Assembly: GCA_947034885.2 (NCBI GenBank)
Contig: OX344751.2
Span: 6,200,001-6,264,000, forward strand
Reading direction: 5' to 3'
Origin: Thuidium tamariscinum
Taxonomy: Eukaryota; Streptophyta; Bryopsida; Hypnales; Thuidiaceae
Length of the DNA stretch: 64,000 bases
The notes beneath the pieces were generated by a model. It saw only the letters and a list, made by a program, of their open reading frames with translations, had not been told where the DNA came from and did no database searches. Positions 7,874 through 32,749 of this stretch are shown here, piece after piece (position 1 is the first letter of the stretch; each line of letters begins with the position of its first letter). The translations under genes were made by a program, and so were the position numbers.

Positions 7874-7891
7874 TAAGGTCGCCTCGATCTA
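7874..7891. promoter_or_regulatory. Degenerate copy of the 19-bp palindrome
   Basis: AAGGTCGCCTCGATCTAA keeps the GGTCG..CGA.CTAA layout of the repeat family but with several changes. It lies just 3' of the FCP1-like stop codon. Confidence 0.35.
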
Positions 7892-7964
7892 AAATGACCA
7901 CACCTCCAATAACCACTAGAGAAGCATCTAGAGGACGCGTTAAAATGCAAAATATTATAAGACC

Positions 7965-9138
7965 CTATCTCAAGCTACTCGATTGCCTCACAATTTCCAT
8001 GAGCCTATTGTATTCCTTCCGGTTTCGCTCATCACACAACATTCTGCGTCCCATTTTTGCGGAACTATTATCCCGAAAGGATTTCAAACCATCGTCGCGA
8101 GCGAGATGGAGACGCTGGAGCCAAGGTAAAAGGTTGTCAAGCAGGAACGTGTCCTTCGGACCGTTGCCCTTGTTTGACCACGTGTCTGGGAGAACAACAT
8201 TCTCTGGCTTGTTGAGAATATGTTTCACCGGACTGTCGTCGACCATGACTGTATTAGTCGGCTTGAAATTCCCGCGGGTAATAGTGAAAAGGTGACTGAG
8301 GTCTTTCAGAAACAACTCCTTGTTTGTGCCTGGCTCCTTGAATACCGTGACGTACCCCGAATTTTCTCTGCACTTCAGCGTGGTGCAAGAGTTCTGCCCG
8401 AAAACGAAATCTGGATATCTTAAGCCGTTGAAGAGATACAAGCAAATCTCTTCAGCAGTGGGCTTTCTCATAGAGCTCCACACTGAGACGTAGGCAAATA
8501 GAGACAATTGTCGCAAAAACTCCGCGCAGTTTGGACGGACATAAACTAGTTTAGGCCCGATAAGCGCGGGGGTGGTTGCCGAATGTGGCTGCCTAGAGTC
8601 TCGAAGACACTTTGGGAAACCCTTGGACTTTGCATCCTCGCAAACACATAGGATCCCATTCAGGTCCAGGACGACATGAAGCCACCTATCCGCCAACCTG
8701 GAACTCAATGGGACCGGAACACCCTCCGACGATTCACCACGAGAACATGCAGGGTCTGATGCCTGCTATCAAACGAAGAGAAGACGATGCTAGTCACTAA
8801 ACAACCTCTCGTGATTGATTTCCCTACTATGAGAATACGGGAAACAGAAAACGGCAGCGAATAAAAAAAGAGAAAAAGGAATCCGTCAAGTGAACAAGCA
8901 ATCATTCATTCATATTACTAACCTCAGGAGGAGGCCCCGTCATTATATGTCCATCTCCCAACGCGACAGTGTCAACAACCTCCAACTCCATCAATGTGGC
9001 ATCACGACTTCCTAGGCCAGCACGAGTAATTTCATCAGGCAGAGCCAGATTATCATCGCTCGCGATTGGCTCGGATTCCACTGCAATTTCATACTCAATG
9101 CCATAAGGATTACTCATGACATTCACAGCGCCTGCCAT
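7965..9138 (-). CDS. FCP1/NIF-type HAD phosphatase-like protein
   Basis: Two exons: 9,138-8,923 and about 8,762-7,965. Exon 1 is an acidic leader (about 72 codons) ending at a GAG|GTTAGT donor. Exon 2 carries the FCP1 homology (NIF) fold. Motif I is VVLDLNGILC, where family enzymes usually have DxDxT, so the second Asp is Asn. Motif II is YVSVWSSM, followed by FVFGQNSC, and motif IV is NTVMVDDSP. The tail is a typical NLLPWLQRL. The family dephosphorylates phosphoproteins such as the RNA polymerase II CTD or acts as TIM50-like scaffolds. The Asn substitution makes full activity uncertain. No transmembrane segment seen. A degenerate palindrome lies 75 bp downstream. The methyltransferase-like gene ends 235 bp upstream, and both share the strand. 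Confidence 0.65.
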
Positions 9139-9329
9139 TGAAAAAAGGTCAAAAATATAATGTGAGAATGCCGTATAAAAATTTCTTATAAGATGAGTGA
9201 TTTTTTACAAAATTGATTTTCAAAAATCAAAATGAAGATCCCTATGGTTTTTCCACGTTGGAGATCTGTATAACGAAGAAAATAAAACCTCTATAATCCT
9301 GTAAGACTATGTAAAAACTATGATACACA

Positions 9330-9348
9330 TTAGGTCGACCCGACCTAA
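9330..9348. promoter_or_regulatory. 19-bp palindrome between two genes
   Basis: TTAGGTCGACCCGACCTAA has one mismatch in the right arm. It sits 25 bp past the stop of the methyltransferase-like gene and about 190 bp upstream of the FCP1-like exon. Confidence 0.6.
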
Positions 9349-9372
9349 ACCGCGAAGCAGCACATGAAAATT

Positions 9373-12300
9373 TTAGCTGGAAGCACCTGCAGAGGCATCC
9401 GAGGTATCCAGCGTAGCCGTCGTGTCATCAACCACAGCAGGGACGCTCTCCACGGCACGTGCAACGACTTCATCGTCCTCAACATCCATTAGAATAATCT
9501 CTGCTGGATCGATGTCAGAATCGGGAGGTGGTAGCGGAGCAGTCATTGGAGAATCTCCGGGAGGAAGAGGAGGCTGCTCACCCTGGATTTTCGGACTCCC
9601 TCTCTCCATCGAGGTACGAGCGGATGCGGCTAAGACAGGTTCAGCGATGAAAGGATTGGGAGCAGAAGTTGATGTCGACGGTACAGAAGCAGCTAAATCC
9701 GCAGGTGCTGGCATCAGAACCTGGGGTGCAGCAGACGAGCTCCTTGGCTGAGGAAGACCTGTTCTATAATTGAGGAACGAACCAAAGGATCCATAACCTG
9801 TACCCGGGATCATCAAAGGTGAGTCACTCGGTCCTGGAAGGGAAGCGCTGATGGGAGTGACGCCCTTCAAGTGGTTCACGATGGCCGCCAAGGTCGCTTT
9901 GTTGTCGGCATTGTGGGAGAAGAGGAGTTCTTTTATCTCATCAAGCCGCTCACTTTGCTCTACATGCAGCGCAAGATTCTGGGCGCGTTCCTTCTTCCGG
10001 GACGCCCTTATCTTTTCTAGCTGCACCCGCATGTCGTCGTCGTCATCGTCGTCATCGTCTTCGTCTCTTCGTCTCTTCTTCTGTGACCTGCTCCGAACGG
10101 GTGTGCTCGCAGGCTGCACATCCATGGGCTGCCCCGATGACGCGGACGACCCCCGCACACTCTGAGTGAGATTCACCGGTGTGCACTGCTCTTCATTGAA
10201 AGCAAGCGTGTCGGTCATTTCCATGTCATCGTCAGTGTTGGCGTTGTCGTCAGACAATTCCTCCACTTCAACTTCAGGTCTTTTCGCCCTGGACAGAGAC
10301 GCTCTTCGTCGAGACGAGGACGGCGTAGATTCCGTTGGAGGCTTTCGCGGGTGAAGCTCCTCATCCACGAAGTACCCCTTTGGAAGGAAGTCGTCTTGGT
10401 CTAAAGATTTGTCCACCTCAACGATTTCAGACCAAAGCTCAGACTCATCAGATGTTCCAACGGCGAACACTCGATATCCTTGCATCTGAGAACAGAAGCA
10501 CATTTTGTAAGTTGGTGAGAATGAAAGCAGAACCACTACCAATTTAGGTCGAGTCGACCTTAAACGAAGATTACATGCCACACTTGACTTGAACATGTGT
10601 AGAGAACAAAGACTTAGAGAATTCGATGGAATTAGGTCGAGTCGAGCTAAAAACACTTACCATGGCAGCGCATGTCAACTTCGCACCACCAAAAACCGAC
10701 AACACGTTCACTGATCCGAGTGCAAAGCGGCGAAGGATATTCAAATAGAACTCCATGCGGAGTTCTGTATTGTGAATCCTGAATGCAATCTCATTGTACA
10801 TTCGAGGCTTATTGAAAACATCTGTGTCAGGAGCCTTGTACGTCCTGCTTGGAAGATGGCATTCCACTCTGGACTTGTCTTGAAGGAAAATGAGAAGCAC
10901 CTTCTCTACCGCCTTGCTATTGCTCGCAGAATAGTCACCCATTCTCTCGTTTTTAGCTGGCAAGTACTCAGCGCTGTCCATTTGGTACTCCTTCAAGACA
11001 GGGTTCTGAGAGATGAATGTGAGCACCTGGGTCTGCTCAACGACATCTGTGCAAATGAACATCCACCTCGGGATCTGTTCAAGTGCTGGCTTCTTCATCT
11101 CTTGGAATGAGCACATCACCGCGTCAAAGTATGGGTTCAGTGGTGTGCACTTTCCCTTGTTCAAAACCACAGGAGTGTATCTGAAGTCAATCACTCCGAA
11201 ACCAATGCCTTGCACCGTCTCCTGCAGCCATGCGCCAGTAAGCCAGTTGTGGTGCTTGTCCGTCTCGATTTCATATGTTCTGTAGTGAGCCACTGTTTGC
11301 GGCTTCACAAAGTTATTGCGACGCGAGAGGAAGGCCTTGAAGAACTGGGCGGCGTAGGGAGACAGCTCCTCCGCTGTCCTATTCTTGGACTTGGTTTGCT
11401 TGGCGTCCTTCCAATAATCCTCCCCTGGTTTTTCAAGGAGAACGTTCATTGTAGCGCTGGTTATGGAGCGACTAATCTTAAATTGCCTCCATTTCTCAAC
11501 GTTCAGAGTGTTGAACGCATTCAACAATCCCAGGGAAGGATCCAACAAGTGCAACTCCCGCTTCACCAAGTACTTTCGCTTGCGCCGCTCCACCCAGTCT
11601 TTTGCGGTGTAGCAGCTCTCCAACACCGATGAAATCATCTTCACTGTCACCTTGGGGTACTGAAGGTTCTGTCTTTTCGGGTTCATATGAAGAATGTGTT
11701 GCGCGAGCTTCTTCAAGTCGTCGTAAGAGAGATTGCCTAACCACTTAAAGAATTCGTGTGTCAGGTTCCCGTTTTCCGACTTCCACCCGGATTTGTCCTT
11801 GAACTTCACCAGAGTGTCTGGGTCAATGAGCTCTCCATGCGCAGCACTTGAAATCACCTCGCTCCAGAGGTCGTAGACGTCGTCTGGCGTAGTGATAATC
11901 TTCAACTCGTTTGTTATCTTCAGCTTCTCTCCGGCGTCTTTCCCTCTTGATGACTTCTGTGATTTCACCACATATAGCATGGCGAATCTGACGTTCATAG
12001 CCTTCACAAATTCCTGTTTGTATACAGTGCAAACTCATTAGTAGGAGTACTGAATTAGGTCGACTCGACCTAAACCATGCGTGCAGATGCGGATTTTAAA
12101 AGAACATAGCCAATGAGATATAGACTTCCAAACATGAGAATTAGGTCGATTCGACCTCAAAGAACCTACCTTGAATTTCAAGGAGTTCTTCTTGTTGTCA
12201 GCGTTGCGTCTGGCCACTGAGGCTGTTCCCACTGGTGCCGCATCCTTCGGATTCCGTGGCCTATCCATATTGATCCAGCATGTTCTTGCACCAAGAATAT

Positions 12301-13604
12301 TTGTAGACCAAGATGGCTTTAGAGCAACGAAGTGATTTACACGGTTATAGTATGCGGATATTGTCCTGAGAATCTCTGATTTGTCAGACCACACTATGTA
12401 GCAGTCCCACTCGCGAAAATGCTTTAGGATGGCCTCATCCACATTCCTCTCGACCATCAGTTTGCTTGCGGATACACTGTGCTGGCCATTCACAATGTAA
12501 AACTCTCCCATCTTCAGCTGCTCCCAATCCTCCCTTTTGGGCTTCTCAATCTGGTGCTTCGGCATGACACACAGAGTCTGCTTTCCAGTTTTGTCTGGCA
12601 TATGCATCAAAAAAATGAAATATATCTTCGACAAGCCGTTGCTCGTGGCTTCGTATGTTCACGTCGGCCGGCGCGGCTACAAGCTTATCGATGGGCAGCC
12701 TCTTCTTCTCGTCAAGCTCGAAGATGTATGCATCACTGCACAATGACCAATAATTCTTGTACGCCTCGGTCGACTCTTTGTAGTCCACCACGCGCTTTGG
12801 ATCATGAGCGGAGGGCACGTCTGTTACAGCTGACGCGAAGCTCAGATCAGCAGGAGTTTTCCTGTCTTTGTCATTCTTCTTCTTAGCAGAAGAAGATGCC
12901 AGGTTACTCTTTCTAGGCGCCGTCGGCGGAGTACCTGTTTGAATGCTTCGTCAGGTCCCACGACTTTGCTGTGTTCCTGGCGTGCCTTGGGAGCTCTGAC
13001 CTTCAATCTGACTTGGAGGATCATGAGACATAGATTGTGGTGCAATCTGACTTTTCTTTAGATCCATCTTCCCCTTCAAAACCGCAAAATCGACAAAGAG
13101 TTGCCTTAATCTGTCACACAGATTCTTGCCGCTCACTTGGGTTCCTTTCTTGGTCCTCCAGTATCCACTGTCCACCTTCTTCTCTAATTCCGGAATCTCG
13201 TCTTTGTATGGTGAATTCTCGAGACTGTGGAGAAAGTGTGTTATGTAAAAAGGAATCTTCAATGAGTCGATCACAAGTGTGAAGTGATATTGCTCGTCAT
13301 CGTTCTTTCCGATTTGCGCTGTGACACAGTGTATCTTGATGACAGTTCCCACGTCAGGGGAGACCTCCTTTATTTTCTCGTCGTACGAGATTGGGTAGAA
13401 CGGCAACTGGTCCTTGTACTTCCGACAGAAGCAATATTTGTGCGTCATTGGAATTAACATGAGAGACCAGCATTCAACGACTTCGGGATCTTTCAACTCC
13501 CAGTACTCTCCTTCGTTGTTGAAGTCATCACCATCATCATCGTCAGCAGCAACGATGTTCAGCCGCTTGAAATACTGCTCGAGCTTGGGAACCTGCTCTT
13601 CCAT
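9373..13604 (-). CDS. ParB-like domain plus degenerate DNA-methyltransferase-like protein
   Basis: Exons 13,604-12,170, 12,013-10,661 and 10,485-9,373 join in frame at clean GT..AG sites. The N-terminal ~200 residues are unknown. Exon 1 then holds MGEFYIVNGQHSVSASKLM followed by a basic/helical stretch, which matches the GQHR-type loop of ParB/sulfiredoxin-fold proteins. Exon 2 ends and exon 3 begins with SVNVLSVFGGAKLTCAAM|MQGYRVFAVGTSD, which follows the SAM-binding motif I of beta-class N4/N6 methylases (VLDPFxGSGTT..A...GR..xGxE). The place where DPPY should stand reads FDAVMCSF, so catalysis is doubtful. ParB-methylase fusions are known in phage and bacteria. The C-terminus has Asp-rich nuclear-signal-like (KKRRRDED) and Pro/Ser-rich tails. 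Frame is interrupted about twice in exon 1. Family assignment is inference. Confidence 0.5.
10544..10650. promoter_or_regulatory. Two 19-bp palindromes inside an intron
   Basis: Copies at 10,544-10,563 (one extra base in the right arm) and 10,632-10,650 (GAGCTAA right end). Both lie within the 175-bp intron 10,486-10,660 of the methyltransferase-like gene. Confidence 0.65.
12055..12159. promoter_or_regulatory. Two 19-bp palindromes inside an intron
   Basis: A perfect copy at 12,055-12,073 and a near copy at 12,141-12,159. Both lie in the 156-bp intron 12,014-12,169 between the ParB-like and methylase-like parts. Confidence 0.7.
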
Positions 13605-13642
13605 CCTGTATTAAAGATGTCAAATACTTTTAGTTCTATAGT

Positions 13643-14406
13643 TTAGGTCGAGTCGACCTAAAAGGACACGTTCTTTTTTAGATGGGAGATCTAATCTGCT
13701 TTTGATTTATGTGTCTGATTTGGTCTATTTTCATCTATTCGTCGAATATATAAAATAATTCGCTTTCAACTTGTGTAGCTTAGGTCGACTCGACCTTAAT
13801 TTTGATATTTACAGAGCATTTCATTGCTTCCCTGATTTACTGGAGTGTGTTGTTATTTGAACTCTATATTACCTCTTCCTCTCGGTGTAACTGATCTAGT
13901 TGCCTCAGTCTTTATCATTACATGGACATTTAGATGTCAGTTTAGGTCGATTCGATCTAATTTGATATCCTGCTTTAATCTATTCAATTGAGGCTTAACA
14001 ATTTACATCTATGCATCTACTTTTTCTCCTCTGAGAGCTTAGTTAATAGTATATGACCTCGGTTTAGGTCGACTCAACCTAACTGGTCCCAGCTACCTGA
14101 GGGTTGGTTTTTTCGGAGGAGCTTAAGAGCAACCGTATGTTTTAGACATTCTCTAAATAAGTACCCAATTTCTACTGGTGATTTGGAATTAGATTGTCTA
14201 ATATACATGCAGTGCTGAATCATTTAGGTCGAATCGACCTAAATGAACCTTCTCTGACTATTATTCCTTATGTCATTGAATAATTTATTCGTGATTTCTT
14301 GCCTATTTGTCTTATTAGGTCGACCCAACCTAAACAACCTACTGTAGTGCTACATTTCCAGACTTCGTTTTTCGATGATAGTCGACCTAAAGTGACATCG
14401 AGCTAA
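13643..14406. promoter_or_regulatory. Array of seven 19-bp palindromes upstream of the ParB-like start
   Basis: Copies start at 13,643 (perfect), 13,780, 13,942, 14,064, 14,224 (perfect), 14,315 and a half-site at 14,382. Spacings are 137, 162, 122, 160, 91 and 67 bp. Between copies the sequence is unique and AT-rich, so this is not a tandem satellite. Most changes in arms are CpG to TpG or CpA. The array lies between the ParB-like initiator Met and upstream leader exons, so it is probably intronic or promoter DNA. Confidence 0.75.
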
Positions 14407-14467
14407 ACTGCTATGATTGAATTCTCCAATTACATACGGCAGCTTCTGTTTCAATTGAAGGAATTAC

Positions 14468-15600
14468 CTGATCCCAAAAGAAGACCGCCCACAAGTTCTG
14501 CAGATTGCGTTTCAACACCCTGATAATGCACAATACAATACTGGTGTACATCAGTAAACCATTGAAATGCAATAACAACGTAACATTTAATCACTTACAG
14601 ATTCATCTGTATTCAGAGCCATCACGAACCCTAAACTAGGATTCTGTATCAACCTCTCAATTGCATTCCACATTCTGCACTGAAAGTGTGCTCACTTGCT
14701 TGTTTCGTTGCTCTCTCAGCAGAAGACAGTAACAATCTCCCGATCAATTAATCCTTGTAAACTTCAGCTCTTACAACTAAACACACACACAACCAAAGCA
14801 CAGACGTTGTTAAACACTTGCAAGAAGGATATGGATAGAGGTTCAGGGAAGCGGCAAAGTCCTCACTGCTTACTATCTGCAAACAGGATAGCATTGTGAA
14901 AATCACTTGTGAGAACACTGAGGTTTCCCTAAAGCAACCGATTTAGCTGTCATGGTTAACTTAGCTAAGAAACAAAGAAGAACTAATTCCATTTAGGGTA
15001 CAATCAGACTAGGAAGCCGCTAATTCCAATTCCTATCAATCGAGCAAGAATAACTACAAATACCAACCTCAACATGCTGAATCACAGACCAAAACTTGCA
15101 TCACAGAACCCTAAACCCTAACGCACAAAGCCACTCAGCAGTACAGAATGATTGTAACTACAAGCTAACAAAGACCTCAATTCTTCCACAAGCTCGATTT
15201 TGTAAGCTTTCTAGAAACAATTCAAATTTGTGTTAAGTTTCCATTAGATAAAGCAGACTAATTACACACAACTAGTTTTCTTTAGTTTAATGTCGTATCT
15301 GTGAGATCTAACAGCTACGTAAACACAACAGCACGAGGTTACAATTGAGATAGCCAGATCTGAGCAATCCCAAACCCTAAACCCACACCAACCGTAATTG
15401 CAACACATTAATCAAAATGCATCAAAACAAAAAACTTCAAAACTCAGAGTTTGGAAAGAAGGGGGAGATCACATACCTCTAGCTTCAGCGCCAACGGAGG
15501 CTGCGACGTCGACGCTCCGCACAGATTGAAGCCTCCTTCACTCCCCGACTCAAAACTTCAAGAGCAATTGGAGAACCCAAAATACCCGACAATTTCAATT
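14468..15600 (-). other. Leader exons, possibly 5' coding exons of a host gene
   Basis: On the minus strand I see an exon ending at 15,477 with a strong GAG|GTATGTG donor, an exon 14,679-14,599 (acceptor CTTTCAG, donor GTAAGTG) and an exon 14,519-14,468 (acceptor TTATCAG, donor GTAATTC). The last two join into one open frame reading MWNAIERLIQNPSLGFVMAL, then a segment ending VGGLLLGSG. That frame does not join in phase to the Met at 13,604. So these are either untranslated leader exons of the ParB-like gene or the stub of another gene whose later exons are displaced. Teloboxes (ACCCTAAACCCTAA) occur at about 15,108 and 15,370. Confidence 0.4.
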
Positions 15601-15715
15601 ACGAATCCCAAGGCGCGGAGAGCAAACCACAACTCCCACAACACGCGACAACAAACAACCTTCAACGCGCAACTCCCTCATGTATTTAGGGCTGCAAATG
15701 GGAAACAAATGCGAG

Positions 15716-15935
15716 CGCCCTCCGATACCCGCCCCCACCTCCCGATGCCCGCCCCCACCACCCGATACCCGCCTGCACCTCCCGATGCCCGCCCCACCTC
15801 CCGAGACCCGCCTCCACCTCCCGATGCCCGCCCCCACCTCCCGATATCCGCCCCCACCTCCCGATACCCGCCCCACCTCACGATACCCGCCTACACCTCA
15901 CGATACCCACCCCACCCCACGATACCCGCTATTGA
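15716..15935. repeat. GC-rich minisatellite, ~18-19-bp unit, G4-prone
   Basis: About eleven diverged units of CCCGATACCCGCCCCCACCT, then a C14 run at about 15,971. The minus strand has repeated GGGCGGG / GGTGGGGG blocks capable of G-quadruplexes. It lies 100 to 300 bp upstream of the presumed 5' end of the minus-strand transcript. All open frames across it are compositional. Confidence 0.85.
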
Positions 15936-15989
15936 CTTGCCAATACCCAAGCTCAATCTTCGTGTATTAACCCCCCCCCCCCCCTCTCT

Positions 15990-17459
15990 CCAAAAAATCG
16001 GAGGCGGTTGATTTCTTTCAGCTTCTAATTCCTCCTGAACAATTGGAAGCCACGGCTCTTTTATTTTTTTAGTTCCTTCCCTTGCAAAAGTGTAGTCTCA
16101 AATCCTACATTCAAAGGTGGGCCCACATACTAGATTTATCACAAGGGAGAACATTGAAAGTTTTATTTTTTTTATTTTTTTTATCTTTCAAATTTTGAAT
16201 TGATTTTCGCAATCAAAGACATTAAATTAGCGAGGAAGCGTCAAAACAAACACAAATAACTATCACATATATAAATTTCAAAATTAATCCCTTTAAATCC
16301 TTGGTAAAACACGATTTATCCAACTAAGACCACCTACGACTATACGAATAAAATTGTGCTTTCCAAAATGCCTCATTCATCTCATGAAAAATCAAAAGCC
16401 ATTGACCATCACCAAATATGATTTAAGTTGTTCAAATACAAAAACAACTACAAATATCGTAACACATATACATGTGTTAAATAATTTGAATAGATAAATT
16501 TAAATGCTATTATAGATATACAAATATAAATATGAGATATGGATTACAAATACGTGATACAAATACAGAATATGGAATATGGGATAAATTGTCCTAAATT
16601 TGTTTTTAAATAAATTGGATTCTAAAAATTACAAGAATTCAAAACAGAAACGCAAAAGGGTAAGCATGTAAAACTTTGAATTCCAAACATCAAACTAGAA
16701 ATTGAAATTCATTGTACAAGTATTGTACCTCATATAAACGTGTAAGATAATTTGAATAGATAAAAACTAAATGCTAATATGGATATACAAATATAAATAT
16801 AGAATTATATAGATTACAAATACGTGATACAAATACAGAATTATATGGAATATGTGATGAATTGTCCTAAATTGATTGTCAAAGCAATTGGATTCTAAAA
16901 ATTACATAAAAATGGGAATGCGGGAGGATAATGTAAATTTTTTTATTTAAAACCCATTTGAAAATCAAATAACCTTTTTTTAATTTGATCAACACATAAG
17001 ACACAAAACAATTACTGAATGCATCATGTAGGCGTTGTAACAAGTAACCCAAAATGTACTTCAGAATACTTCATTGAAATTGTCAATCAATTCATGGGAA
17101 TAAAAAACAACGGATATTTCGTTAAAATGGCATATGCCACAAACTTGGCAATTTCAAGGTTTAGACCATGTGGTTTAGGGTGTACACCTCTTGTAGATTT
17201 CTAGAATTTGAAGTCTCAAATCTATATCAATCCTAGAAATTGAATGGAAAAGTGCCGTAGCAATACCATCATTTTAACGAAATAGCTGTTAAAGTTTGGT
17301 TCCTTGAAGTAATTATCAGAAGAGAACGGTCATTATTTTCCATCATGTACCATGAAAGATTGAAGAACTTCATAGCCTGAGGTAGAAGTCATTTGAGTGC
17401 TTTGCAATAAAATAAAGTATAGAGAATCGTATTTTCTAATGAAATCATTCATCCCTCAT
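15990..17459. other. AT-rich non-coding DNA with a ~150-bp direct duplication
   Basis: Two direct copies of a segment containing AATTTGAATAGATAAA and GATTACAAATACGTGATAC lie at about 16,475-16,610 and 16,742-16,880, offset by about 267 bp. No coding signal. Confidence 0.5.
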
Positions 17460-22752: not shown

Positions 22753-24438
22753 ATGGCAGAAGAGGTGCAGGAAGGAAGGATTCTAGCCTTCCGGAATGTG
22801 AATCCGGTCGTGCCAACTGACGCACAAGACAAGAGGGAGCTGGAGGAAGACCTCAAGCAGATGGGCTGCGAGGGGTTCATGGCTCACCCCTGGAACCTGA
22901 AGGATGAGGCGATGGTGGAGGAGCTACTGGCCGGCCAGACCAACGAGTGGAAAGGGACGGTCCGGGCGCTGCCAAAGGAGTGGAGTGCAGCGATGTGGCG
23001 CAAGGTGTATGCCTTCGAGCAAGGAGGAGATGCGACGGGCACCCGGACGGACAAATTCCACCAAGGGAAGTTCCGCAGGCCCACCAACCCGAAGGACGGC
23101 TTTACAGTAGCAGAGTGTGTGTCTGCTAGACACAAGAGGCTACTGCGGTTCATGATGGCGATCTTGAACCCGGATAGACCTAGTAGGATTACGGTCACCG
23201 TGGCCAACACTGTCTTTGGTGCACTGTCGGGAGACAGGAAGATAGATTGGGGGTTAGTTATGAGGGACCGGATGGACCGAATGGTGAAAGGAATTGGGAA
23301 ATCTAAACCCTCTCCCATTTCACCATTCCTGTTTCATCTGTATCATTCGTTAGACCTCTTGAGAGAGAAGGAGATGGAAGCTTACGAGGTAGGGGCTGCA
23401 TTGATAGAGTATGAGATTGCAGACCCGGAAGCGGAAAATGACCAGGATGAGGAGGACTCCGAGGATGAGAGTCAGGAGGGGCATCAAGGAGGCACACAAG
23501 AAGTAGAGGAGGTTCCAGAGGTAGGAAGAGAGGATCCACCTCTAGAAACCCCTGTAGTAGCCGGGGAAGCCCAGAGGTTAGATCCGGTCTGGGAACAGGA
23601 TCCCTTGCTAAGGATCCTGCGAGACCTGGAAGATTTCAAAAAGCACCACCTAGAGGAGAGAGGGTTATTGCGGGCCATAAGCCAAGCCTTAGGCTCTATT
23701 CCCCCCTCCAAGATCATGGAGGTGTTGGGAGAATTGATTCAGGAGGCTCATGATAGTCGGGACAGAGAGGAGGTACTCCGGCTAACAAATCAGGTCTCAG
23801 CCCTGAGGAGGGAGCTCCATCACACTCAGGAGGAGCTGGATGAAGAGAGACGACTCACCACGCAGGCCCGGAACACACTCGGAGAAATCCGAGAGTTCAT
23901 CACGCATCCGGGTGAAGTCGTCAACAAAGCCATGCTTTTCGACAGGAAGGTCTTGGAAGCAGGCAAGATGGTGGGTCCTCAGATGCTTACAGCTCTGGTG
24001 GCCTACAACAAGAAAATGGAGGCAGCGCTGGAGAAGTGGCGGTCAGTAGTCACGGAGGTCCAAGCTAGTTCTGCTCCGGTCTCAGGACCGAAAGGGACAA
24101 AGATGGAGAAGGAGCAACCGAAGGATCAGCCACCACTAGCAGCTGTCGAGGTAGAAGCCGGCATATCTGAACCGGCGAAGGAAGAGGGAACCAGGACCGA
24201 CGCAGTGGAGGAGGAATCTGTCCCACCGGCCCGGATTGAAGAGCCCAGGGTTTCTCAACCCGAGAAGACCAAGGAGCCGGAACCCGAGCCGATTGTGTTG
24301 AGGGAGATAATCCGGGGAACTACACCACCAAGGGAGAAGACCAAGTTCATCACCTTGTTGGATGATTCTCCAAGCAAGTCATCACCCACGGTCATCACAC
24401 AACCAAAGACCGGAGGGGAAGCGAAGGCAACGGTGTAG
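22753..24438 (+). CDS. Plant-transposon-protein-like, coiled-coil acidic protein
   Basis: A 561-aa open frame. Residues ~120-210 hold RHKRLLRFMMAILNP..., ITVTVANTVFGALSGDRKID and SPISPFLFHLYHSLDLL. This layout (exposed-residue helices, 'GALSG.KIDWG') resembles the putative plant transposon protein domain (PF20167-like, from memory). Residues 225-280 are Glu/Asp-rich, 335-390 form a heptad-rich coiled coil (RREVLRLTNQVSALRRELHH type) and the C-terminal third is Pro/Glu/Lys-rich. No zinc knuckle, protease or polymerase motif. ATG context and high GC3 mark it as real coding. Role unknown; possibly a structural or packaging-like protein of a non-autonomous element. Confidence 0.55.
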   Translation: MAEEVQEGRILAFRNVNPVVPTDAQDKRELEEDLKQMGCEGFMAHPWNLKDEAMVEELLAGQTNEWKGTVRALPKEWSAAMWRKVYAFEQGGDATGTRTDKFHQGKFRRPTNPKDGFTVAECVSARHKRLLRFMMAILNPDRPSRITVTVANTVFGALSGDRKIDWGLVMRDRMDRMVKGIGKSKPSPISPFLFHLYHSLDLLREKEMEAYEVGAALIEYEIADPEAENDQDEEDSEDESQEGHQGGTQEVEEVPEVGREDPPLETPVVAGEAQRLDPVWEQDPLLRILRDLEDFKKHHLEERGLLRAISQALGSIPPSKIMEVLGELIQEAHDSRDREEVLRLTNQVSALRRELHHTQEELDEERRLTTQARNTLGEIREFITHPGEVVNKAMLFDRKVLEAGKMVGPQMLTALVAYNKKMEAALEKWRSVVTEVQASSAPVSGPKGTKMEKEQPKDQPPLAAVEVEAGISEPAKEEGTRTDAVEEESVPPARIEEPRVSQPEKTKEPEPEPIVLREIIRGTTPPREKTKFITLLDDSPSKSSPTVITQPKTGGEAKATV

Positions 24439-24510
24439 GTCCGCTCTATACTGAAGACCGGATCTGGATCCGGGTCACCAAGCCAGGGACCAGCCCGGAC
24501 TGCCGAGAGA

Positions 24511-24849
24511 GTGGGGGAGCAGACCCCGCAAAGCAAGATAGTGCACCACCCGCCCATCACCGGATTCAAGAAGAAGACCGCGGAGACATCCAAGGTGAAG
24601 CGGAAGGCCCGGGATGAAGAGGAAGAGGAGTCAGATGAGGAAGATGAGGACTCGGAGGAAGAGACCGACTCCGGTGATGAGTCGGAACAGTACTCAGATG
24701 CGGACCAGGCATTGGCAGAGACCACGAAGACCAGGGCCAGGGCGCGGGGTAAGACCAAACCGAAACCCAAGCCCATCAAGATGTACCGGTCTCCGAAGAA
24801 GCAGCCAGCCCGGAAAGGTGCGTCGCCTCTCAAGAAGGTGAGGAAATAG
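24511..24849 (+). CDS. Acidic then basic tail segment of the same unit
   Basis: 112 codons with a Glu/Asp-Ser cluster (EEEEESDEEDEDSEEE) followed by an Arg/Lys/Pro-rich end (RARGKTKPKPKPIKMYR). It continues the composition of the preceding frame and probably belongs to the same product or a downstream one. A nuclear or nucleic-acid-binding tail is plausible but unproven. Confidence 0.35.
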   Translation: MGEQTPQSKIVHHPPITGFKKKTAETSKVKRKARDEEEEESDEEDEDSEEETDSGDESEQYSDADQALAETTKTRARARGKTKPKPKPIKMYRSPKKQPARKGASPLKKVRK

Positions 24850-26050
24850 GGGGCATTAATTACAGGTAGATAGGAAGGCGGCTAAACCAAGTTATATTTA
24901 GGTTAGGAACTTTTGAACTTAGACCGGATCCAGATATGTAGGATCTGTGATCCTATTTTGTTGGTATTTTTGTAGTTTTGTGGAAGTCAACCTACCCAAG
25001 TTGTAGAGGAATGTGAGGTGGCATTCTTGGCGGCTGGTGTTGATTCCATTTGCACTTTTAGGTTTTCTTGCAGTTTAGTATTTAAACCCGGTTCGTAATT
25101 GAATCCGGGCGCGCATTATGTTATCTTACTTTCACAAGTTTTTGTGTTGCAAATACAAGTCAGAACCTTTCTGATTCACTCTGAAGTGGACTGTGTGCAT
25201 GGGACCTTGTCAAAGTCTTATGGTGATGGTTAGGATTGCAACCTTGTGTGGATAAGTGTGTGCCCGGATGGTCAGTTTATCCGGTCTCTGGACTTAAAGT
25301 GAATTCGGTTTTGATAGGGAATTTGTGTAGGATCCCACAGTGCTTTCTGAAACTGGTCTAGGGAGTATTTGATAGAGATAGACACTTGTAGAGTCTGGGT
25401 TTGAGATCGGGAGCGTCCGGCCAAATGCCAACTGAATGGTGATCCGGTCTCTGTAAAAGAAAGAAGGACTAAGTGAGGAAATTCAGCTCTCTTGCATAAG
25501 TTACCGCCCTTATTCTACCAGGGATTAGACTAACTGGTTCTTCCGTCGTTGTAGTCTTTGTTAGGATTAGGCAGGAGTGCTTGCGTGACCTGCTGGGTCG
25601 GATTAGTCCCGGTCCAGTTGTGAGGTATTCTGGTCTGTTTGTAGTAGTAGTTTCTTTTTACTCATAAGTGGAACTTCTGACACTTTAAAACTTGAAGGGT
25701 AGGAGTAAGCTTCCTTCCTAAACGCCCAAACAAGCAGATCCCTCTTGTTACCGAGGTTAAACTTACACTTGGTTACTATACTAGGGATTGGACCAGCTAC
25801 TAGTATCCGGTCTTTAGTCCCATATCTAGTGAGCGTAAGCATCAAGGTGGTGAACATACAGGTATAGATAGATAGACTTAGTTTGGAAGGATAAAGGATT
25901 GATCTGGTAATCAGGTCCAAGGAAATCTTAGGAACGTTGGAGACCAAGACCGGATCAGTCTTTTGCTTGGGTTTTGTTGTGATAACCACTAACGTATTCC
26001 GGTCTTTCGTCAACTTTCAACCAAATCTCTTGGGAACGATACACGAGTCA

Positions 26051-27918
26051 CTTTAAGGCTAATTTAGTGCATTCTAAAGCCTTAGAGAAGGAATTGTGCT
26101 TTCCTGTGCTACGACAGTACTAGTGGCTTAAATTTCTTATATAAATTATACATAGGAGTTTCGATTATTTTTTGTAGCCCATTTGCATTTTCTTTTATTT
26201 GGTTAGAGTGAGTTTCATTTTTAAAAAATGTAAGAGATCTTCATCTAAATTTTAGGTGTATAAGAAGATAAACATATCAAAGCATTAAATAATGGTACCA
26301 AATTTTTATATGCTAGAATGTACATTCCAATTCCATAATTTATATTTAATCATTTTTTTAGAACTTCATTAAATAGATTGGATATTCTAGAAAGTAAGTA
26401 AAGGGTTGGTCTTCATTCTTATTGTACATTAAAAGATGATTAAATTCAATAAAAAATGAACTTGTAGAAATTATGTATATATAAGAATATTTCATGTAAA
26501 TTGCATATTATATTGTTCCAATCAAATAATTATAATTTAATTTTGTCTTAATGTTTAGGATGTTTAGTAAAATTGAATTAGCTTTAAGAGCTCAAAGTTT
26601 AGGAAGCTACAATTTTGAATTTCCTATGTTTTTGAATTCCATTAAACATTAGCAACGTCTAAAATTATTTTAAGCATATTAGTCAGAGAAGCCAAAGCAC
26701 TTGATTAACCAAGTTTTACTAATGAATAACCACTTCAAGTTTTATTTCAATTCTTCATGAATAATTTTCAAAGGGCATGATGTACAAATTGTAATTTCTT
26801 TGTGCTTCTTGTAGGACGTATACAAATATTTTTAAATCATACGTTTTTTTCCCTACGCTTTTACATTGACGAAAATGTCTTTTACTGGATTTTTGTTCAT
26901 AGAATACAATGTCCCATTTATTTAGGATGATATAAATGTGGGAGTAGAATAAAATAATGAGCCCTACAATTTTTCTTCACTTGGTTTTATATCCTTTTTA
27001 AACAAAGGTTGGAAGACGTTGAATTGAGAACTTTAAAATTCCGTGGCAAAATGAAATTTGAAACAACGTCTACATTCTACGCGTTAAAAGTTTTCTCCTT
27101 ATTAAATTCTATGCCTTAAAGTTGACTAGTTCTAGACAACATAGTTGTAGGAGAATGTAGTTATTATTTAGAATCTAAAAATCTCAATAATTTTAATCCT
27201 TAAAATCTAACTTTTGAATCTTGAATCCTAAACTATAAATCCTAAAATCCTAGAAGAAGAAATCTTTGATTTTGATTTTGAAATCCAATAGTTTCATAGA
27301 AAGAGGAGTCATATTTTCCCTTATTATTCACCATTATCACGCAAAAACTATAATACTTACTTCGAAGCAAAAGGATTCGAAATATCCCTTTCAAGTTACA
27401 AACAATGTGGAACCTCAAAATTTACCTATAAGATTTTTTTCTAAACTTAAAGTATTGTCTATTTTAAAATTTGGGATTGTAGACTTTTTTCTGAATTGAG
27501 TGGCAAGGCAATATACAGTAGAAAGAATAACTGTGCTTTATTCCAATCATAGTACGGAACGGGAATTGAAATTCTTGAGAGAATTTTTTGCCATAATGAC
27601 AATGGAGAAAAGAAAAAGCCTGTCAAAAAGGAGGGAATAAAGGGAAGAGAAGAATTTGGATACAAGCTGAGGTCAATGATCCTCCATAACCTCGTATAAT
27701 GGCCAAAAAAAGAGTGGAATTTTGGCATTGGCTACATGCGGCGAAATGGACCTGTGCCCTTTTTGTAACAATAGAATGTAGTTTTAGAAGTACTTGTTCA
27801 AAAACATATCCTAAACTTCGAGATACTATCCATGTTTTCCCGGACACAAATGAAACGGAATACTATTTATGTTCAATCTAGCCATGAAGTGTCTTACAGC
27901 TTTAGGAACGGGCTGGAA
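26051..27918. other. Very AT-rich intergenic DNA
   Basis: No coding, repeat unit or RNA gene recognised. Short frames at 27.2-27.9 kb on both strands lack support. Confidence 0.45.
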
Positions 27919-28522
27919 TCATTCACCCGCGCCTACCTTTTTCCAATAACAGAAAAAGGAAGCCAACAAATTCCGATCAGCAACCAAGAAATTGCATGGG
28001 TTCCTTCCTAATTCAAACGTCTCCATTGCACTTGCCGCCTTCGTCCCTCCCGCCAAGAAATTATCATCATTCAACCTATATTCCAACTCCCTCCGGAGGG
28101 TGAGCGTTCTCTCATTTTCGTGAACACATTCTTGAGGCCGCTTGCTGCTCTTCCGTTTGCGCGCGGCGTGTTCTGCAAACGTTAGGTGTGCTGCGCATTT
28201 CGAAGGTTGTTTGTAGTACGTCGTAGAGTTCCGCGGTGTCGAAGGTTGTGGTGGAAAGCTTCGGTGACTTGGGTATGGCATACACGTTTCTTGTAGGCTC
28301 CGTAGGGTTTTCTGAATTCGCTCTGAACATTTCTGTTGTCGGATACTGGAGTCGCTCAGCAATCTTCGTCGACAGATGCATTTGCTTGTTCATTGTGTAT
28401 GCTAGCATCACGAACTCCAATGGTGCAAATTGCGATACATTGTTGTGTGCTACGATTGTGCTTTCGATGATCTGAGGGAATGCAAGAGGACTCCTATTTT
28501 CGCGCCGCAAAACCCGGAACAT
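27919..28522 (-). CDS. Unknown ORF divergent from the 945-aa gene
   Basis: Minus-strand frame from ATG 28,522 with moderate GC and sensible codon use (MFRVLRRENRSPLAFPQIIE...). A second frame takes over near 28,190 (PQECVHENERTLTLRRELEY...) and runs to 27,919. The shift is either a short unseen intron or a lesion. No domain recognised. It starts 48 bp left of the outermost palindrome, so the array 28,570-29,163 sits exactly between this ORF and the 945-aa ORF like a bidirectional control region. Confidence 0.4.
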
Positions 28523-28569
28523 AGAAGTGTTCGGTTGTACAGAATAACTTCCGCGAAATCCGGAGCTAT

Positions 28570-29163
28570 TTAGCTCGACTCGACCTAAATAAGCCGATTG
28601 TCACGTCCATGTTCATGTTGGGGACCCTTTTAGCTCGACTCGACCTAAATAAACCATTCATTAAGAATATATCCTATATCACTACTGTTTAGGTCGAGTC
28701 GACCTAAACTGGAGATCAGCTGAAACCCAAAAATTATCGCCATTTGTGATGAAGTACACCATTATTTTTTAATGTTATAAAAATGAATTACAATGAAGAG
28801 AGACTGAACAGTTTAGGTCGAATCGACCTAAATGGTAAATATATCAAAATGTCCGGTTTCTTGTTTTCCATTGTTAAAATGAAAATAACGTTACCTATTT
28901 AAAGATGGTTCTATTTACTCAAGATACGATTAGTGATGTGATGAGATAATATTGCCTTCTCCTTTAGATTAGATGAGTTTAGGTCGACTCGACCTAATTT
29001 ACAGTATACAGTTATGCTAGTTTAGAGACTATGTTATCTGCGTCTTCCAAGAAGTAATTGTGGTTTTTATTTACAATACATTGAATCTCTACTTGCTGAC
29101 GTTTTGGAAACAAATAATTTAGATTCTAGTGTATGATTGGTCATTTAGGTCGACTCGACCTAA
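28570..29163. promoter_or_regulatory. Array of six 19-bp palindromes in a divergent intergenic region
   Basis: Copies at 28,570, 28,630 (both TTAGCTCGACTCGACCTAA), 28,689, 28,813, 28,979 and 29,145 (all four perfect arms). Spacings are 60, 59, 124, 166 and 166 bp. The central base varies (C, C, G, A, C, C) while the arms are conserved, as expected of a dyad bound by a dimer. It fills the space between two divergent ORFs. Confidence 0.85.
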
Positions 29164-29251
29164 TTGTTTCATAGAAGAAGACTTTCTTTTGTGTTTCTAT
29201 TACCATTCAATTATAGCTAACGTGTGAGTCTGATTTTCTGATTCAGATATC

Positions 29252-32089
29252 ATGTCTTCCTCGATCATTCCAGGGGGTTCTATGGACTCTTCAGACGATG
29301 AGTTCCAGGTTCTCGAGGGAATGAATGTCGGCATTCCTGAGTGTGAAGGGCTGCCACGGCGACTTTGGAATACGATGTGTGTTACTCTGTACAACATTCA
29401 GGGCACGCTCGTCGGGGAGGGAACTTGTCATAGCGTGTCCTCAGACCTTGTCCTGGGTGCAAACGGTCCTCTTGGAGACACCCATGTTGCAATTCACATC
29501 TCAAAGACACACTCCAAAGAAGATATCCCCCGGGAGCGGGTCTATTCATTGATGGCATGGCCAATTGATTACGTGCATTGTCGAGGGGCTAGTCTTCGCG
29601 ACCACGAAGCCCGGGATAATTTCAACCGCCTCCAAGCAAGTATTTTGAATCCTCCATCACTGACATCTGCTCGACCTTACACAAGTGTCGTTCGAAATCC
29701 TCCACGTGAAGTTGGGTTGAGGGCGAAGGAACTTCTCACACAAGAGTCCATCAACGCTGTCTCCAGCAAAATCTGCTGCTCCGGAAATTGCATTCAGCCG
29801 TTTCCGAGGGAGAAGATAAAAGCATTTCGGGAACGCATGTACCAGGGTTCGACGTTCAAGTTTAGGGCCCATATGAAGACAGAAGTTTATAGGTCCGTGC
29901 ACCGTGATCCAAGTGGGAGGAAGATGGTTGTCGTGGAGGGGATCAGTGTGTGCATGCGGGCGTGGATGCTCATTTCTGGAGTCCCAGAGGCTACATTCTA
30001 TCGCTACCAAAGATATGCAAACAACAATCGAGAAGCAAGGGACCATGGCAACTTTGGTTTGCTGAAGCCAAGGCAACACACTGAACAGGCAGCGGCTACG
30101 CTAAAGTGCATCCTCGAGAACGAGGCAGACCACATGCCACATAAAACACGGAGTATGAAGTCTGGAGAGAAGGTGGTCTCTATGATTTTGCCATCTACCT
30201 TTCAATGGAAGGGGCAGATGAAAACAATCAATGAAACAAACGCTGCCTTCGGCTTGAGAGATATCTCCTTCTCCAATCTGAGTAAAATAAGGTCTAAGAA
30301 ATTATCTGAATTTGAAGTGAAAAAGCCAGGGGACAATTTTGCTAGATGTGCCACTTGTGATCAGTTGCAGGAGTTGAGGAAGAGTGCTTTGGCTGGATCT
30401 GTCAGTGCATTGAAGTGGTCACGTAGGTTGGACAAACATCTGGCTATCGCACGTGCCCACAGAGAGTACTACTACGCCAATCGATACTGCTCTTTCAATT
30501 CTCCGCATGAGTGCCTCACGATCATGCACGACAAGATGGATCATGCCAAGACGGCTTGCCCAGTATTCTCACACAAGAGTAAGGACACCGATGGCTTGGT
30601 GAAGTTGCCAATTTCTGTCACGGGCATGATTGCCCACGGACATGGTGACGTCCGGTATGCCCATTATGGCTTGGATATCTTCCCCCATGATTCAAACTAC
30701 ACTATCGGCTCCATGGCGAGGTTGTTACGAGATTTGGAGGAACCGCCAAAGTCTTCTTCAAGGATGTTGTTTGTGGGGTCAGGGTCCACCAACTTATTTC
30801 AAAGGGTTTTGAAGGGTGCAGAAATGTGTAAAGCATCACTACCGCCGCCACCACAAACCTTTGTTTTTGGAACACCATTGCCTCCGATTCTTAATGTGCA
30901 GATGGACAATGCCACAGGTGACAACAAGAATCGGTATGTTTTTTGTTTCTGGTCTCTTCTTGTCGCCAACAAGATTTTTCGAGAAGTTTACGTGAACTTC
31001 ATGATTGTTGGGCACACACACGATGACATCGATGCGTTTTTTGGGAGATGGAGTATGCTATTGAAGAAGGAGAATTTCCCAACAGTTCCAGCACTCATGA
31101 AATCGTTCATGGACGTGGAATCTATTCCAACTATTCCCCACCTCATTGAGGAGGTGCCGGACTTCAAGGGATTTATAGCAGGTTCATTTGTTGATGGTGA
31201 TGAGATCCTTGTTGGACATACAAAGCCACAACAAGTGAAGTTCTACTTGGATTCAAATGGAGTTCCAGTCATGAAGTACAAATTGCTTTGTACTGATCTT
31301 GAATGGTTAGGGGAGGATGGTAGAGGTATCAAGTTGTGGAAGGAAGATTCTGAGGGACATAGTCTGTGGCCTCGTGGAGTGCCATTGCCTGTTTCCCCCA
31401 AACCAATGAGAGGATTGGAGGACATTGAAAAAGGCATTGGAGGCTTTGTGAAGTATTGGGAGAACTTGTGTAATGCAGATCTCACAGGAGAGTGTCGGAG
31501 GCGTTATGAGCATGTTGTACACTATTGGCGTGATGTGAAGAATGCTTTGCAAGAACCACTACTTCCATGCATGGTTTTGAAGGACGGTTTCTGGCCAAGT
31601 ACTAGAGTTGAAGCCATTGCAGCCGATCAATTAGGAGAAGATGGAGATGAACTTGAGGAGTTTGGGGAGGACGATGCTTATGTTGGGCCTTTGCGTGGTC
31701 GTCCGCAACCATCTTTCAGGGTTGGTCGTGATCTCTTTGAAGGTTATTTTGTAGCAGTTTGTCCTGCAGATGGTGATACACGGCCAGTTTGGATTGCAAG
31801 GGCATTGTCTAATCCAGATTGCAACCCGGAGCACCCAAATTGTGTTCTCATCCAATACTTCCGTCCGACATCAAAAGACCAGGATGTGCGAGACTACTAT
31901 ACTGGTTGGGATAGTACAAGAGGTTTACGTTGGAAGGTGGACATAAATGATCCTCCAATTTGGGAGCATACTAATGCTTTGATGACAGCATGGAAGTCTC
32001 AAATCAAGAAAGATACTCGACAGTGCTTGTTGAAGATTCCAAGTGCTCAAATTGAAGTGATAAACCGGAGCCTTGAAATGTTCACTTGA
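29252..32089 (+). CDS. 945-aa DDE/RNase-H-like protein, probable transposase
   Basis: Intronless 945-aa frame. Cys pairs occur near residues 172-177 (CCSGNC) and 367-370 (CATC). Three acidic blocks have DDE-like spacing: IMHDKMDHAKTACP (~423), LNVQMDNATGDNKNRYVFCF (~549) and VGHTHDDIDAFFGRW (~585). The D-N-x4-NKNRY and GHTHxxID signatures match the DUF7869-type proteins found scattered in plants, protists and animals, which look like an RNase-H-fold transposase (my inference). A C-terminal Trp-rich module (GYFVAVCPADGD..., YTGWDSTRGLRWKVD) resembles a BAH/SAWADEE-like reader. No interruptions. It is flanked by palindrome copies on both sides and has an AATAAA at 32,297. Confidence 0.65.
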   Translation: MSSSIIPGGSMDSSDDEFQVLEGMNVGIPECEGLPRRLWNTMCVTLYNIQGTLVGEGTCHSVSSDLVLGANGPLGDTHVAIHISKTHSKEDIPRERVYSLMAWPIDYVHCRGASLRDHEARDNFNRLQASILNPPSLTSARPYTSVVRNPPREVGLRAKELLTQESINAVSSKICCSGNCIQPFPREKIKAFRERMYQGSTFKFRAHMKTEVYRSVHRDPSGRKMVVVEGISVCMRAWMLISGVPEATFYRYQRYANNNREARDHGNFGLLKPRQHTEQAAATLKCILENEADHMPHKTRSMKSGEKVVSMILPSTFQWKGQMKTINETNAAFGLRDISFSNLSKIRSKKLSEFEVKKPGDNFARCATCDQLQELRKSALAGSVSALKWSRRLDKHLAIARAHREYYYANRYCSFNSPHECLTIMHDKMDHAKTACPVFSHKSKDTDGLVKLPISVTGMIAHGHGDVRYAHYGLDIFPHDSNYTIGSMARLLRDLEEPPKSSSRMLFVGSGSTNLFQRVLKGAEMCKASLPPPPQTFVFGTPLPPILNVQMDNATGDNKNRYVFCFWSLLVANKIFREVYVNFMIVGHTHDDIDAFFGRWSMLLKKENFPTVPALMKSFMDVESIPTIPHLIEEVPDFKGFIAGSFVDGDEILVGHTKPQQVKFYLDSNGVPVMKYKLLCTDLEWLGEDGRGIKLWKEDSEGHSLWPRGVPLPVSPKPMRGLEDIEKGIGGFVKYWENLCNADLTGECRRRYEHVVHYWRDVKNALQEPLLPCMVLKDGFWPSTRVEAIAADQLGEDGDELEEFGEDDAYVGPLRGRPQPSFRVGRDLFEGYFVAVCPADGDTRPVWIARALSNPDCNPEHPNCVLIQYFRPTSKDQDVRDYYTGWDSTRGLRWKVDINDPPIWEHTNALMTAWKSQIKKDTRQCLLKIPSAQIEVINRSLEMFT

Positions 32090-32296
32090 GGTGTTATAGT
32101 TATGGTGACCTACTTCCTATAGTAGTGTCTAAGTTGCATCATATATGCCGTCGAATGTTATTATCACAGCAGTTGGTTTGGATTGGATTTGGTGTTGATT
32201 TGTCTCTGCTGTTAATTGTCTTACGTTGCATATCGGTTTCTAACAAACCATTGCATAAGGTGTTAGTTTAATTGCTTTGATTTTCCAAGTATTCTT

Positions 32297-32302
32297 AATA
32301 AA
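32297..32302 (+). terminator. AATAAA polyadenylation signal
   Basis: Consensus hexamer about 210 bp past the stop codon of the 945-aa gene, in T-rich 3' sequence. Confidence 0.5.
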
Positions 32303-32461
32303 GACTATTTTTGTAGCAAATGGAATCGTTACTGCAAGTTATCATTGACTACTAGGTACCTTCATCGTATTTTTGCATTCAGTGTATGAATGCTTGATGT
32401 AGAGGTTGAATAAATCCATAAATTACTGGATTTGTTGGTGTATTTGGTAAAGAGTTACGAT

Positions 32462-32749
32462 TTAGGTTGAGTCGACCTAAATTGCAACTTCTACATAGTT
32501 GTTCTTTAGAGGTGGAATCAAGTTAGGTTAATTCAAACAAAACAACAGTGCATTTGTGGATTAACGTTTGGAAGAGGATGCAATTTAGGTTGAGTCGACC
32601 TAAATTGTTAGCTCGATTCTAAACAGTTGAGCCCCCATCATTTTGTCTAGGATTATTGAGTGATGAGAGATTTTTTTATTTTTTTGAGTTCATTCAAATT
32701 GAATGGAATGTGTTTCTTCATCATTGCAATTTAGGTTCACTCATTCTAA
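32462..32749. promoter_or_regulatory. Downstream palindrome group
   Basis: Two good copies, both TTAGGTTGAGTCGACCTAA, at 32,462 and 32,585, plus two eroded ones at 32,523 and 32,731. The same TCGA to TTGA (CpG to TpG) change in both good copies suggests local duplication after the change, or shared ancestry. Confidence 0.7.

What the first reader, a model, noticed from the sequence alone, without database searches (positions are those of the whole stretch)
7874..32749. A 19-bp dyad, TTAGGTCGA-N-TCGACCTAA, repeated about 20 times in two separate loci
Copies occur at 7,874, 9,330, 10,544, 10,632, 12,055, 12,141, 13,643-14,382 (seven), 28,570-29,145 (six) and 32,462-32,731 (four). Arms are conserved while the centre base varies (A, C, G, T) and spacer sequence is unrelated. 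That is selection or recent spread of a binding site rather than a satellite. None falls in an exon; they fill introns, leaders and the divergent spacer. The rest of the window (34-64 kb) has none. Changes are mainly CpG decay.
Basis: partly seen in the sequence, partly recalled or inferred. Interest (0 to 1): 0.9.

Follow-up and report, generated by a model that had tools for sequence, protein, structure and literature searches.

The report
Palindromes marking one giant jumping gene
A 19-letter palindrome occurs some twenty times inside a single 27,000-letter mobile DNA element, outside its protein-coding parts and crowded ahead of two of its genes, which looks like a binding site by which the element recognises and controls its own copies.

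Summary
In detail: 20 copies of TTAGGTCGA-N-TCGACCTAA (up to 3 mismatches; 0.02 expected), none in coding sequence by my gene models. The "two separate loci" are one thing. A pogo/Tigger-like transposase gene is split in two; between its pieces lies one insertion, 6635-34023 (27,389 bp), with 16-bp inverted ends AACA(CT/TC)ATATTCATTA and a 4-bp duplication TTTG. Joining the flanks restores the host frame and an unbroken DDE_1 match. All 20 dyads lie inside. They crowd upstream of two divergent genes: a 945-codon DUF7869 protein, probably the transposase, and a decayed gene with ParB-like motifs. Most likely they are binding sites for an element-encoded regulator (self-recognition, autoregulation or anti-silencing, as in Arabidopsis VANDAL/VANC), not end-recognition sites, since the terminal 1.2 kb hold no clear copy. 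"Mainly CpG decay" is not supported (4 of 16 changes). No family model supports the ParB label. The same string in bacteria belongs to another repeat. Binder, superfamily and host species are unproven; no genome is held for this window.

The parts
6635..34023 (.). Whole inserted DNA element, 27,389 bp, flanked by the 4-bp duplication TTTG (6631-6634 and 34024-34027)
   Evidence: inverted ends plus TSD at the break of a pogo/Tigger-like reading frame; joined flanks give one continuous DDE_1 match (positions 3-177, 81.9 bits)
6635..6650 (+). Left terminal inverted repeat AACACTATATTCATTA
   Evidence: the degenerate end sequence occurs in the window only at the two ends at up to 2 mismatches (0.26 expected by chance)
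34008..34023 (-). Right terminal inverted repeat AACATCATATTCATTA (read on - strand), 14 of 16 identical to the left
13643..14333 (.). Dyad array of six (13643, 13780, 13942, 14064, 14224, 14315) just upstream of the ParB-motif gene; a lone half-site follows at 14382
28570..29163 (.). Dyad array of six (28570, 28630, 28689, 28813, 28979, 29145) just upstream of the DUF7869 gene
12055..12159 (.). Two dyads (12055, 12141) inside one 156-bp intron (12014-12169) of the ParB-motif gene
   Evidence: splice sites by eye
10544..10650 (.). Two dyads (10544, 10632) inside another 175-bp intron (10486-10660) of the ParB-motif gene
   Evidence: splice sites by eye
9330..9348 (.). One dyad between the ParB-motif gene and the phosphatase-like gene
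7874..7892 (.). One dyad (3 mismatches) between two coding segments of the phosphatase-like gene, 1,239 bp from the left end
32462..32603 (.). Two dyads (32462, 32585) downstream of the DUF7869 gene, 1,420 bp from the right end; weak matches at 32730 and 33911 are within noise
29252..32089 (+). Intact 945-codon ORF with DUF7869 (PF25273); probable transposase with acidic motifs IMHDKMD (424), VQMDNATGDN (549), GHTHDDID (587)
   Evidence: (E 3.7e-42); the transposase role is inferred
9373..13604 (-). Gene with ParB-like motifs: coding about 13604-12170, 12013-10661, 10485-9373. One in-frame TGA at 12951-12953 and a frameshift near 12.64 kb: decayed in this copy, unless assembly errors
   Evidence: splice sites read by eye; no family model supports the ParB label
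6998..9138 (-). Gene with an NLI/CTD-phosphatase domain (PF03031), in at least three segments by eye
   Evidence: E about 1e-17
14450..28500 (.). Dyad-free middle: GC-rich microsatellite, 177-178-bp tandem repeats (17.7-21.5 kb), gag-like ORF (22753-24849), AT-rich DNA; its own or nested
34028..34564 (-). Host DNA: first piece of the interrupted pogo/Tigger-like transposase (with an older stop of its own)
5612..6634 (-). Host DNA: second piece of the interrupted pogo/Tigger-like transposase

Best explanation
SHOWN: both dyad loci belong to one 27.4-kb DNA insertion with inverted ends and a 4-bp target duplication. The clear dyads lie only in its noncoding DNA, packed upstream of two divergent genes, in introns and downstream. 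INFERRED: the element is a large cut-and-paste transposon whose transposase is the DUF7869 protein. The dyad is the two-fold symmetric operator of a dimeric DNA-binding protein made by the element, perhaps the ParB-motif protein or the transposase itself. Binding at some 20 sites marks the element's own chromatin, controls its two promoters, and may keep or strip silencing marks, as VANC proteins do at motifs in noncoding parts of VANDAL transposons.
For: Boundaries: (0 of 300 shuffles of the junction regions give such ends). Dyads: 20 in the element, 0 in the other 36.6 kb. 0 of 20 in coding DNA, which fills 72% of the two loci. Arms conserved while centre and spacers are free. No flanking duplications over 3 bp. 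Six dyads within 0.75 kb upstream of each of two genes. Precedent: VANC21 binds YAGTATTAY in noncoding VANDAL21 DNA and induces methylation loss (PMC5735166 and PMC10398659, passages only).
Against: No binding data and no second copy of the element. No DNA-binding domain was recognised: DUF7869 protein in Pfam and NCBIfam; pieces of the ParB-motif gene in Pfam, and in part in NCBIfam and PHROGs, with only sub-cutoff matches such as HEPN-like_int (E 0.02-0.03) and Cwf_Cwc_15 (E 0.006). The ParB-motif gene is broken in this copy. A host protein could be the binder. VANC motifs are short (9 bp for VANC21) and lie in tandem repeats; these are longer palindromes with unrelated spacers. A half-site with one mismatch lies in the DUF7869 coding region and another outside the element (29671, 37493), as chance would give.
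Confidence: 0.55

Rival explanations
1. The dyads are transposase recognition sites that help bring the ends together, like the subterminal TnpA repeats of Spm/CACTA elements.
For: They are dispersed copies of one motif in a large DNA transposon; CACTA elements carry such repeats near both ends (PMC2613891, passages). A weak 7.6-bit match lies near the right end at 33911, within noise.
Against: The nearest clear dyads are 1,239 bp (left) and 1,420 bp (right) from the ends and most are several kb inside. In soybean Tgmt* the repeats lie within 159 and 732 bp of the ends. The ends here are AACA with a 4-bp duplication, not CACTA with 3 bp.
Confidence: 0.1
2. Sites for a host transcription factor captured by the element to drive its promoters.
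For: Promoter-proximal arrays upstream of two genes; nothing shown ties the sites to an element protein.
Against: No copy in the other 36.6 kb. A 19-bp conserved palindrome is long for an ordinary plant factor (recalled). Copies also sit in introns and downstream.
Confidence: 0.2
3. Self-modification target: the ParB-motif protein is a methyltransferase-like enzyme and the dyad, with GANTC at its centre, is its site.
For: GANTC is kept in 17 of 20. By eye, the end of exon 10661-12013 and the start of the next resemble a permuted methyltransferase motif I.
Against: No Pfam, NCBIfam or PHROGs match to a methyltransferase, and I saw no DPPY-type motif by eye. By my arithmetic from 16 changes in 360 letters, about 16.7 of 20 would keep GANTC without any special constraint.
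Confidence: 0.07
4. A tiny mobile palindrome, or an RNA hairpin signal, that spread within the element.
For: Near-identical copies in unrelated sequence; 4 of the 16 changes would leave a G-U pair in RNA.
Against: No direct repeats longer than 3 bp flank the copies. None of the 16 changes is matched by a compensating change in the other arm. The would-be loop GANTC changes no more often (3 of 80 letters) than the stem (13 of 280). Arrays lie upstream of genes.
Confidence: 0.05

Closest known systems
Arabidopsis VANDAL21/VANDAL6 transposons with their VANC anti-silencing proteins
   Same: A DNA transposon whose noncoding DNA carries many copies of one motif; for VANC21 the motif is bound by the element's protein and coding-region probes lack it (PMC5735166, PMC10398659, passages)
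   Different: VANC21's motif is a 9-bp word in tandem repeats. Here it is a 19-bp or longer palindrome in unrelated spacers, membership of the Mutator superfamily was not tested, and no VANC relative was recognised
Spm/En and other CACTA elements with TnpA-bound subterminal repeats
   Same: A large DNA transposon with many copies of a short motif; the 20.5-kb soybean Tgmt* shows that size alone is not new
   Different: Clear dyads avoid the terminal 1.2 kb; ends and TSD length differ
Sola, Ginger and Academ superfamilies (4-bp, or 3-4-bp, duplications; recalled, not from a call)
   Same: 4-bp target duplication
   Different: Transposase kinship could not be tested; no reference sequences at hand
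Bacterial ParB-parS
   Same: Several palindromes beside a gene with ParB-like motifs
   Different: ParB kinship is not supported by any family model, and the element is integrated in what reads as a eukaryotic chromosome
Rhizobial palindromic repeat with the same 19-mer
   Same: The identical string occurs in 51 bacterial stretches
   Different: There it is the centre of a longer repeat with its own recurring flanks, by eye in nearly all 51 (L048 differs on one side); best read as coincidence

Membership tests
TIR (cut-and-paste) DNA transposon | Terminal inverted repeats flanked by a short target duplication | tested here: met
   16 bp, 14 identical, TSD TTTG; 0 of 300 single-base shuffles of the two junction regions match it
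TIR (cut-and-paste) DNA transposon | Empty site restored when the insertion and one TSD are removed | tested here: met
   Host frame reads through the junction; one DDE_1 match 3-177 of 177, 81.9 bits, against 26.5 and 48.0 for the two pieces. An older stop elsewhere in the host gene was set to X
TIR (cut-and-paste) DNA transposon | Encodes an RNase-H-like DDE/D transposase | tested here: inconclusive
   DUF7869 with three acidic motifs; single-sequence fold of 385 residues unusable, mean pLDDT 34; no PDB sequence match
CACTA/Spm | CACTA ends, 3-bp duplication, motif arrays near the ends | tested here: not met
   AACA ends, 4-bp duplication, no clear dyads in the terminal 1.2 kb
VANDAL/VANC anti-silencing system | Motif confined to noncoding DNA of the element | tested here: met
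   0 of 20 in coding DNA, 20 of 20 in the element, within this window only
VANDAL/VANC anti-silencing system | Motif sits in tandem repeats | tested here: not met
   Spacers unrelated
VANDAL/VANC anti-silencing system | Element protein binds the motif and removes methylation | not testable with these tools
   Needs binding and methylation data
ParB | ParB N-terminal domain by profile | tested here: not met
   No ParB match in Pfam, NCBIfam or PHROGs; only DUF6551 at E 0.1 in Pfam; one weak tblastn hit each in phages (E 6) and plasmids (E 5). The tested pieces bridge a frameshift
Sola/Ginger/Academ | Transposase similarity to the superfamily | not tested
   No reference sequences held; defining traits recalled only

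The most novel reading that the evidence does not exclude
A new lineage of giant DNA transposons with a DUF7869 transposase that carries its own self-recognition system: an element-encoded protein (ParB-motif) loads on some 20 palindromic sites spread over the element, much as bacterial ParB loads on parS, and so marks, activates or protects the element's own chromatin.
Probability: 0.12. Interest if true: 0.85.

Novelty: new variant of a known kind. Interest (0 to 1): 0.6.

Why it matters
To my knowledge (recalled) few transposons are known to carry both a sequence-specific self-recognition factor and its target sites through their noncoding DNA; VANDAL/VANC is the worked example. An independent case with a long palindromic site, in an element with an intact DUF7869 gene, would suggest that such systems arose more than once and would give DUF7869, a domain of unknown function, a likely role as transposase. 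The ends given here make both claims directly testable by scanning the host genome for further copies.

Tried and rejected
Host pogo/Tigger element's own ends: a perfect 25-bp inverted pair at 2850 and 38997 looked like them, but further copies at 38267 and 52189 show a repeated end, 38267-38997 alone forms a ~0.73-kb unit, and no matching duplication flanks the outer pair; not claimed. LTR pair or nested element around the gag-like ORF: self-comparison found no LTR-like pair (pairs within the satellite and microsatellite were left out), only a close 192-bp direct repeat at 16449/16715; a weak inverted pair 22495/24862 frames the ORF. Hairpin RNA: rejected, no compensating changes. Micro-transposition of the dyad: no flanking duplications over 3 bp. 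Common ancestry of spacers: best z 2.7 of 182. Extra half-sites: 6 with up to one mismatch outside the dyads, no more than chance by my estimate. Structure: two single-sequence models, mean pLDDT 34 and 38, too poor, so no fold search was made. PDB by sequence: none for the DUF7869 protein, 4 weak matches for the ParB-motif composite, best E 0.06 to IMP3. Relatives in viral contigs: none for DUF7869 or the ParB-motif fragment; for exon 10661-12013 one stretch met a pattern but was not confirmed. Exact dyad: 0 in viral contigs, 51 stretches in prokaryote contigs, a different repeat. Bacterial promoter scan of the array region: nothing useful. Papers: DUF7869 named in 0; arm strings in 544, of which the 20 listed showed nothing relevant by title; moss + ParB + transposon + Physcomitr together 0; listings only; passages of PMC4455052 and PMC6431247 gave no match for this element, though PMC6431247 notes maize Helitrons up to 39 kb. 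Rfam and tRNA scans: 0 hits. DUF7869 in one Rhizobium genome and 14 controls: none, which that answer calls uninformative.

Full report
OBSERVATION. The dyad is real. One search finds 20 copies with up to 3 mismatches against 0.02 expected, and seven are perfect. A palindromic weight matrix built from these 20 scores them at 25.5-38.1 bits, against a best of 9.7 in 50 Markov sequences; it adds only two weak matches, 32730 (9.3) and 33911 (7.6). The centre base is free (C 10, G 6, T 2, A 2). The symmetry reaches weakly to about 27 bp.

ONE ELEMENT, NOT TWO LOCI. Two open frames on the - strand, at 34145-34564 and 5612-6694, look like the two halves of one pogo/Tigger-like transposase. A search for inverted ends with a target duplication ranks first AACACTATATTCATTA at 6635 and its inverted partner AACATCATATTCATTA ending at 34023, flanked by TTTG on both sides, at the place where the host protein breaks. 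Removing the insertion and one TTTG gives an open frame across the junction...HHFLLTLQTLYELSTENRHLFILDGHKSH... (an older stop lies further upstream in the host gene). Its DDE_1 match runs from 3 to 177 of 177 at 81.9 bits, against 26.5 and 48.0 bits for the halves. Shuffling the junction regions gave such ends in 0 of 300 trials. At up to 2 mismatches the end sequence occurs nowhere else in the window (0.26 matches expected by chance, and 2 of 100 shuffles had two). The insertion is 27,389 bp and holds all 20 dyads; the other 36.6 kb holds none.

ANATOMY. Left to right: phosphatase-like gene (-, PF03031); a large gene with ParB-like motifs (-, 13604 to 9373) with a stop at 12951-12953 and a frameshift near 12.64 kb in a run of T; six dyads upstream of it; a dyad-free middle with tandem repeats and a gag-like ORF; six dyads; the intact 945-codon DUF7869 ORF (+); two dyads. 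Four dyads sit in two short introns of the ParB-motif gene. None of the 20 overlaps the coding segments, which fill 72% of the two loci; by simple proportion, taking copies as independent, the chance is about 1e-11 (splice sites by eye, two borders since moved by 1-5 bp without effect). The nearest clear dyads are 1,239 and 1,420 bp from the ends.

EVOLUTION OF THE SITES. Spacers between dyads are unrelated (best z 2.7 of 182 comparisons) and no duplications over 3 bp flank the dyads. So they look like neither a satellite nor little mobile inserts. The 16 changes in 20 copies include 4 CpG transitions, and 36 of 40 CpGs survive, although CpG is only mildly depleted around them (observed/expected 0.70 in 2,402 bp of noncoding DNA with dyads removed).

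MECHANISM. A long two-fold symmetric site with a free centre base suggests a dimeric DNA-binding protein (general knowledge). Its confinement to the noncoding DNA of one element, ahead of two genes, points to a regulator that serves the element. The closest worked example is VANDAL/VANC (PMC5735166, PMC10398659; passages), where the element's protein binds a short motif in its noncoding DNA and induces loss of methylation. The CACTA model of subterminal transposase-helper sites (PMC2613891; passages) fits badly, as the ends lack clear dyads. Which protein binds is not shown. The ParB-motif protein is a candidate from a pattern seen by eye (IVNGQHSVSASK); no family model confirms it, so this stays a lead. 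That the DUF7869 protein is the transposase is inferred from its three acidic motifs and from the lack of another recognised candidate in the element; structure prediction without relatives failed.

LIMITS. No genome is held for the window, so no second copy, host scan or species name could be had. Telomere-like AAACCCTAA words in the sequence suggest a plant, by recall. The same 19-mer in rhizobia and kin is the centre of a different, longer repeat.

VERDICT. A real and well-bounded find: one large DNA transposon with a palindromic site through its noncoding DNA. It works most likely like a VANDAL/VANC-type self-recognition or autoregulation system but is not shown to be one. New variant of a known kind; interest 0.6.

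Noticed in passing
38267-38997: A ~0.73-kb MITE-like unit with 25-bp inverted ends (GGGYRATTGCAAGAAACACTTGTCC) and a possible 4-bp duplication TGGT; further end copies at 2850 and 52189.
   Followed up: partly
5612-6634 and 34028-34564: A pogo/Tigger-like transposase gene interrupted by the large element, with an older stop of its own.
   Followed up: yes
17721-19071 and 20824-21475: Tandem repeats of 177-178 bp inside the element's dyad-free middle.
   Followed up: no
16449-16633 and 16715-16906: A close pair of 85%-identical direct repeats of about 190 bp.
   Followed up: no
22753-24849: A gag-like ORF with an acidic tail and no LTR pair found around it; a weak inverted pair 22495/24862 frames it.
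   Followed up: partly
46236-48959: Two adjacent ORFs (587 and 319 aa, - strand) without Pfam match, perhaps another transposon gene.
   Followed up: no
L001-L051: The identical 19-mer is the centre of a longer palindromic repeat in Rhizobiales genomes.
   Followed up: partly
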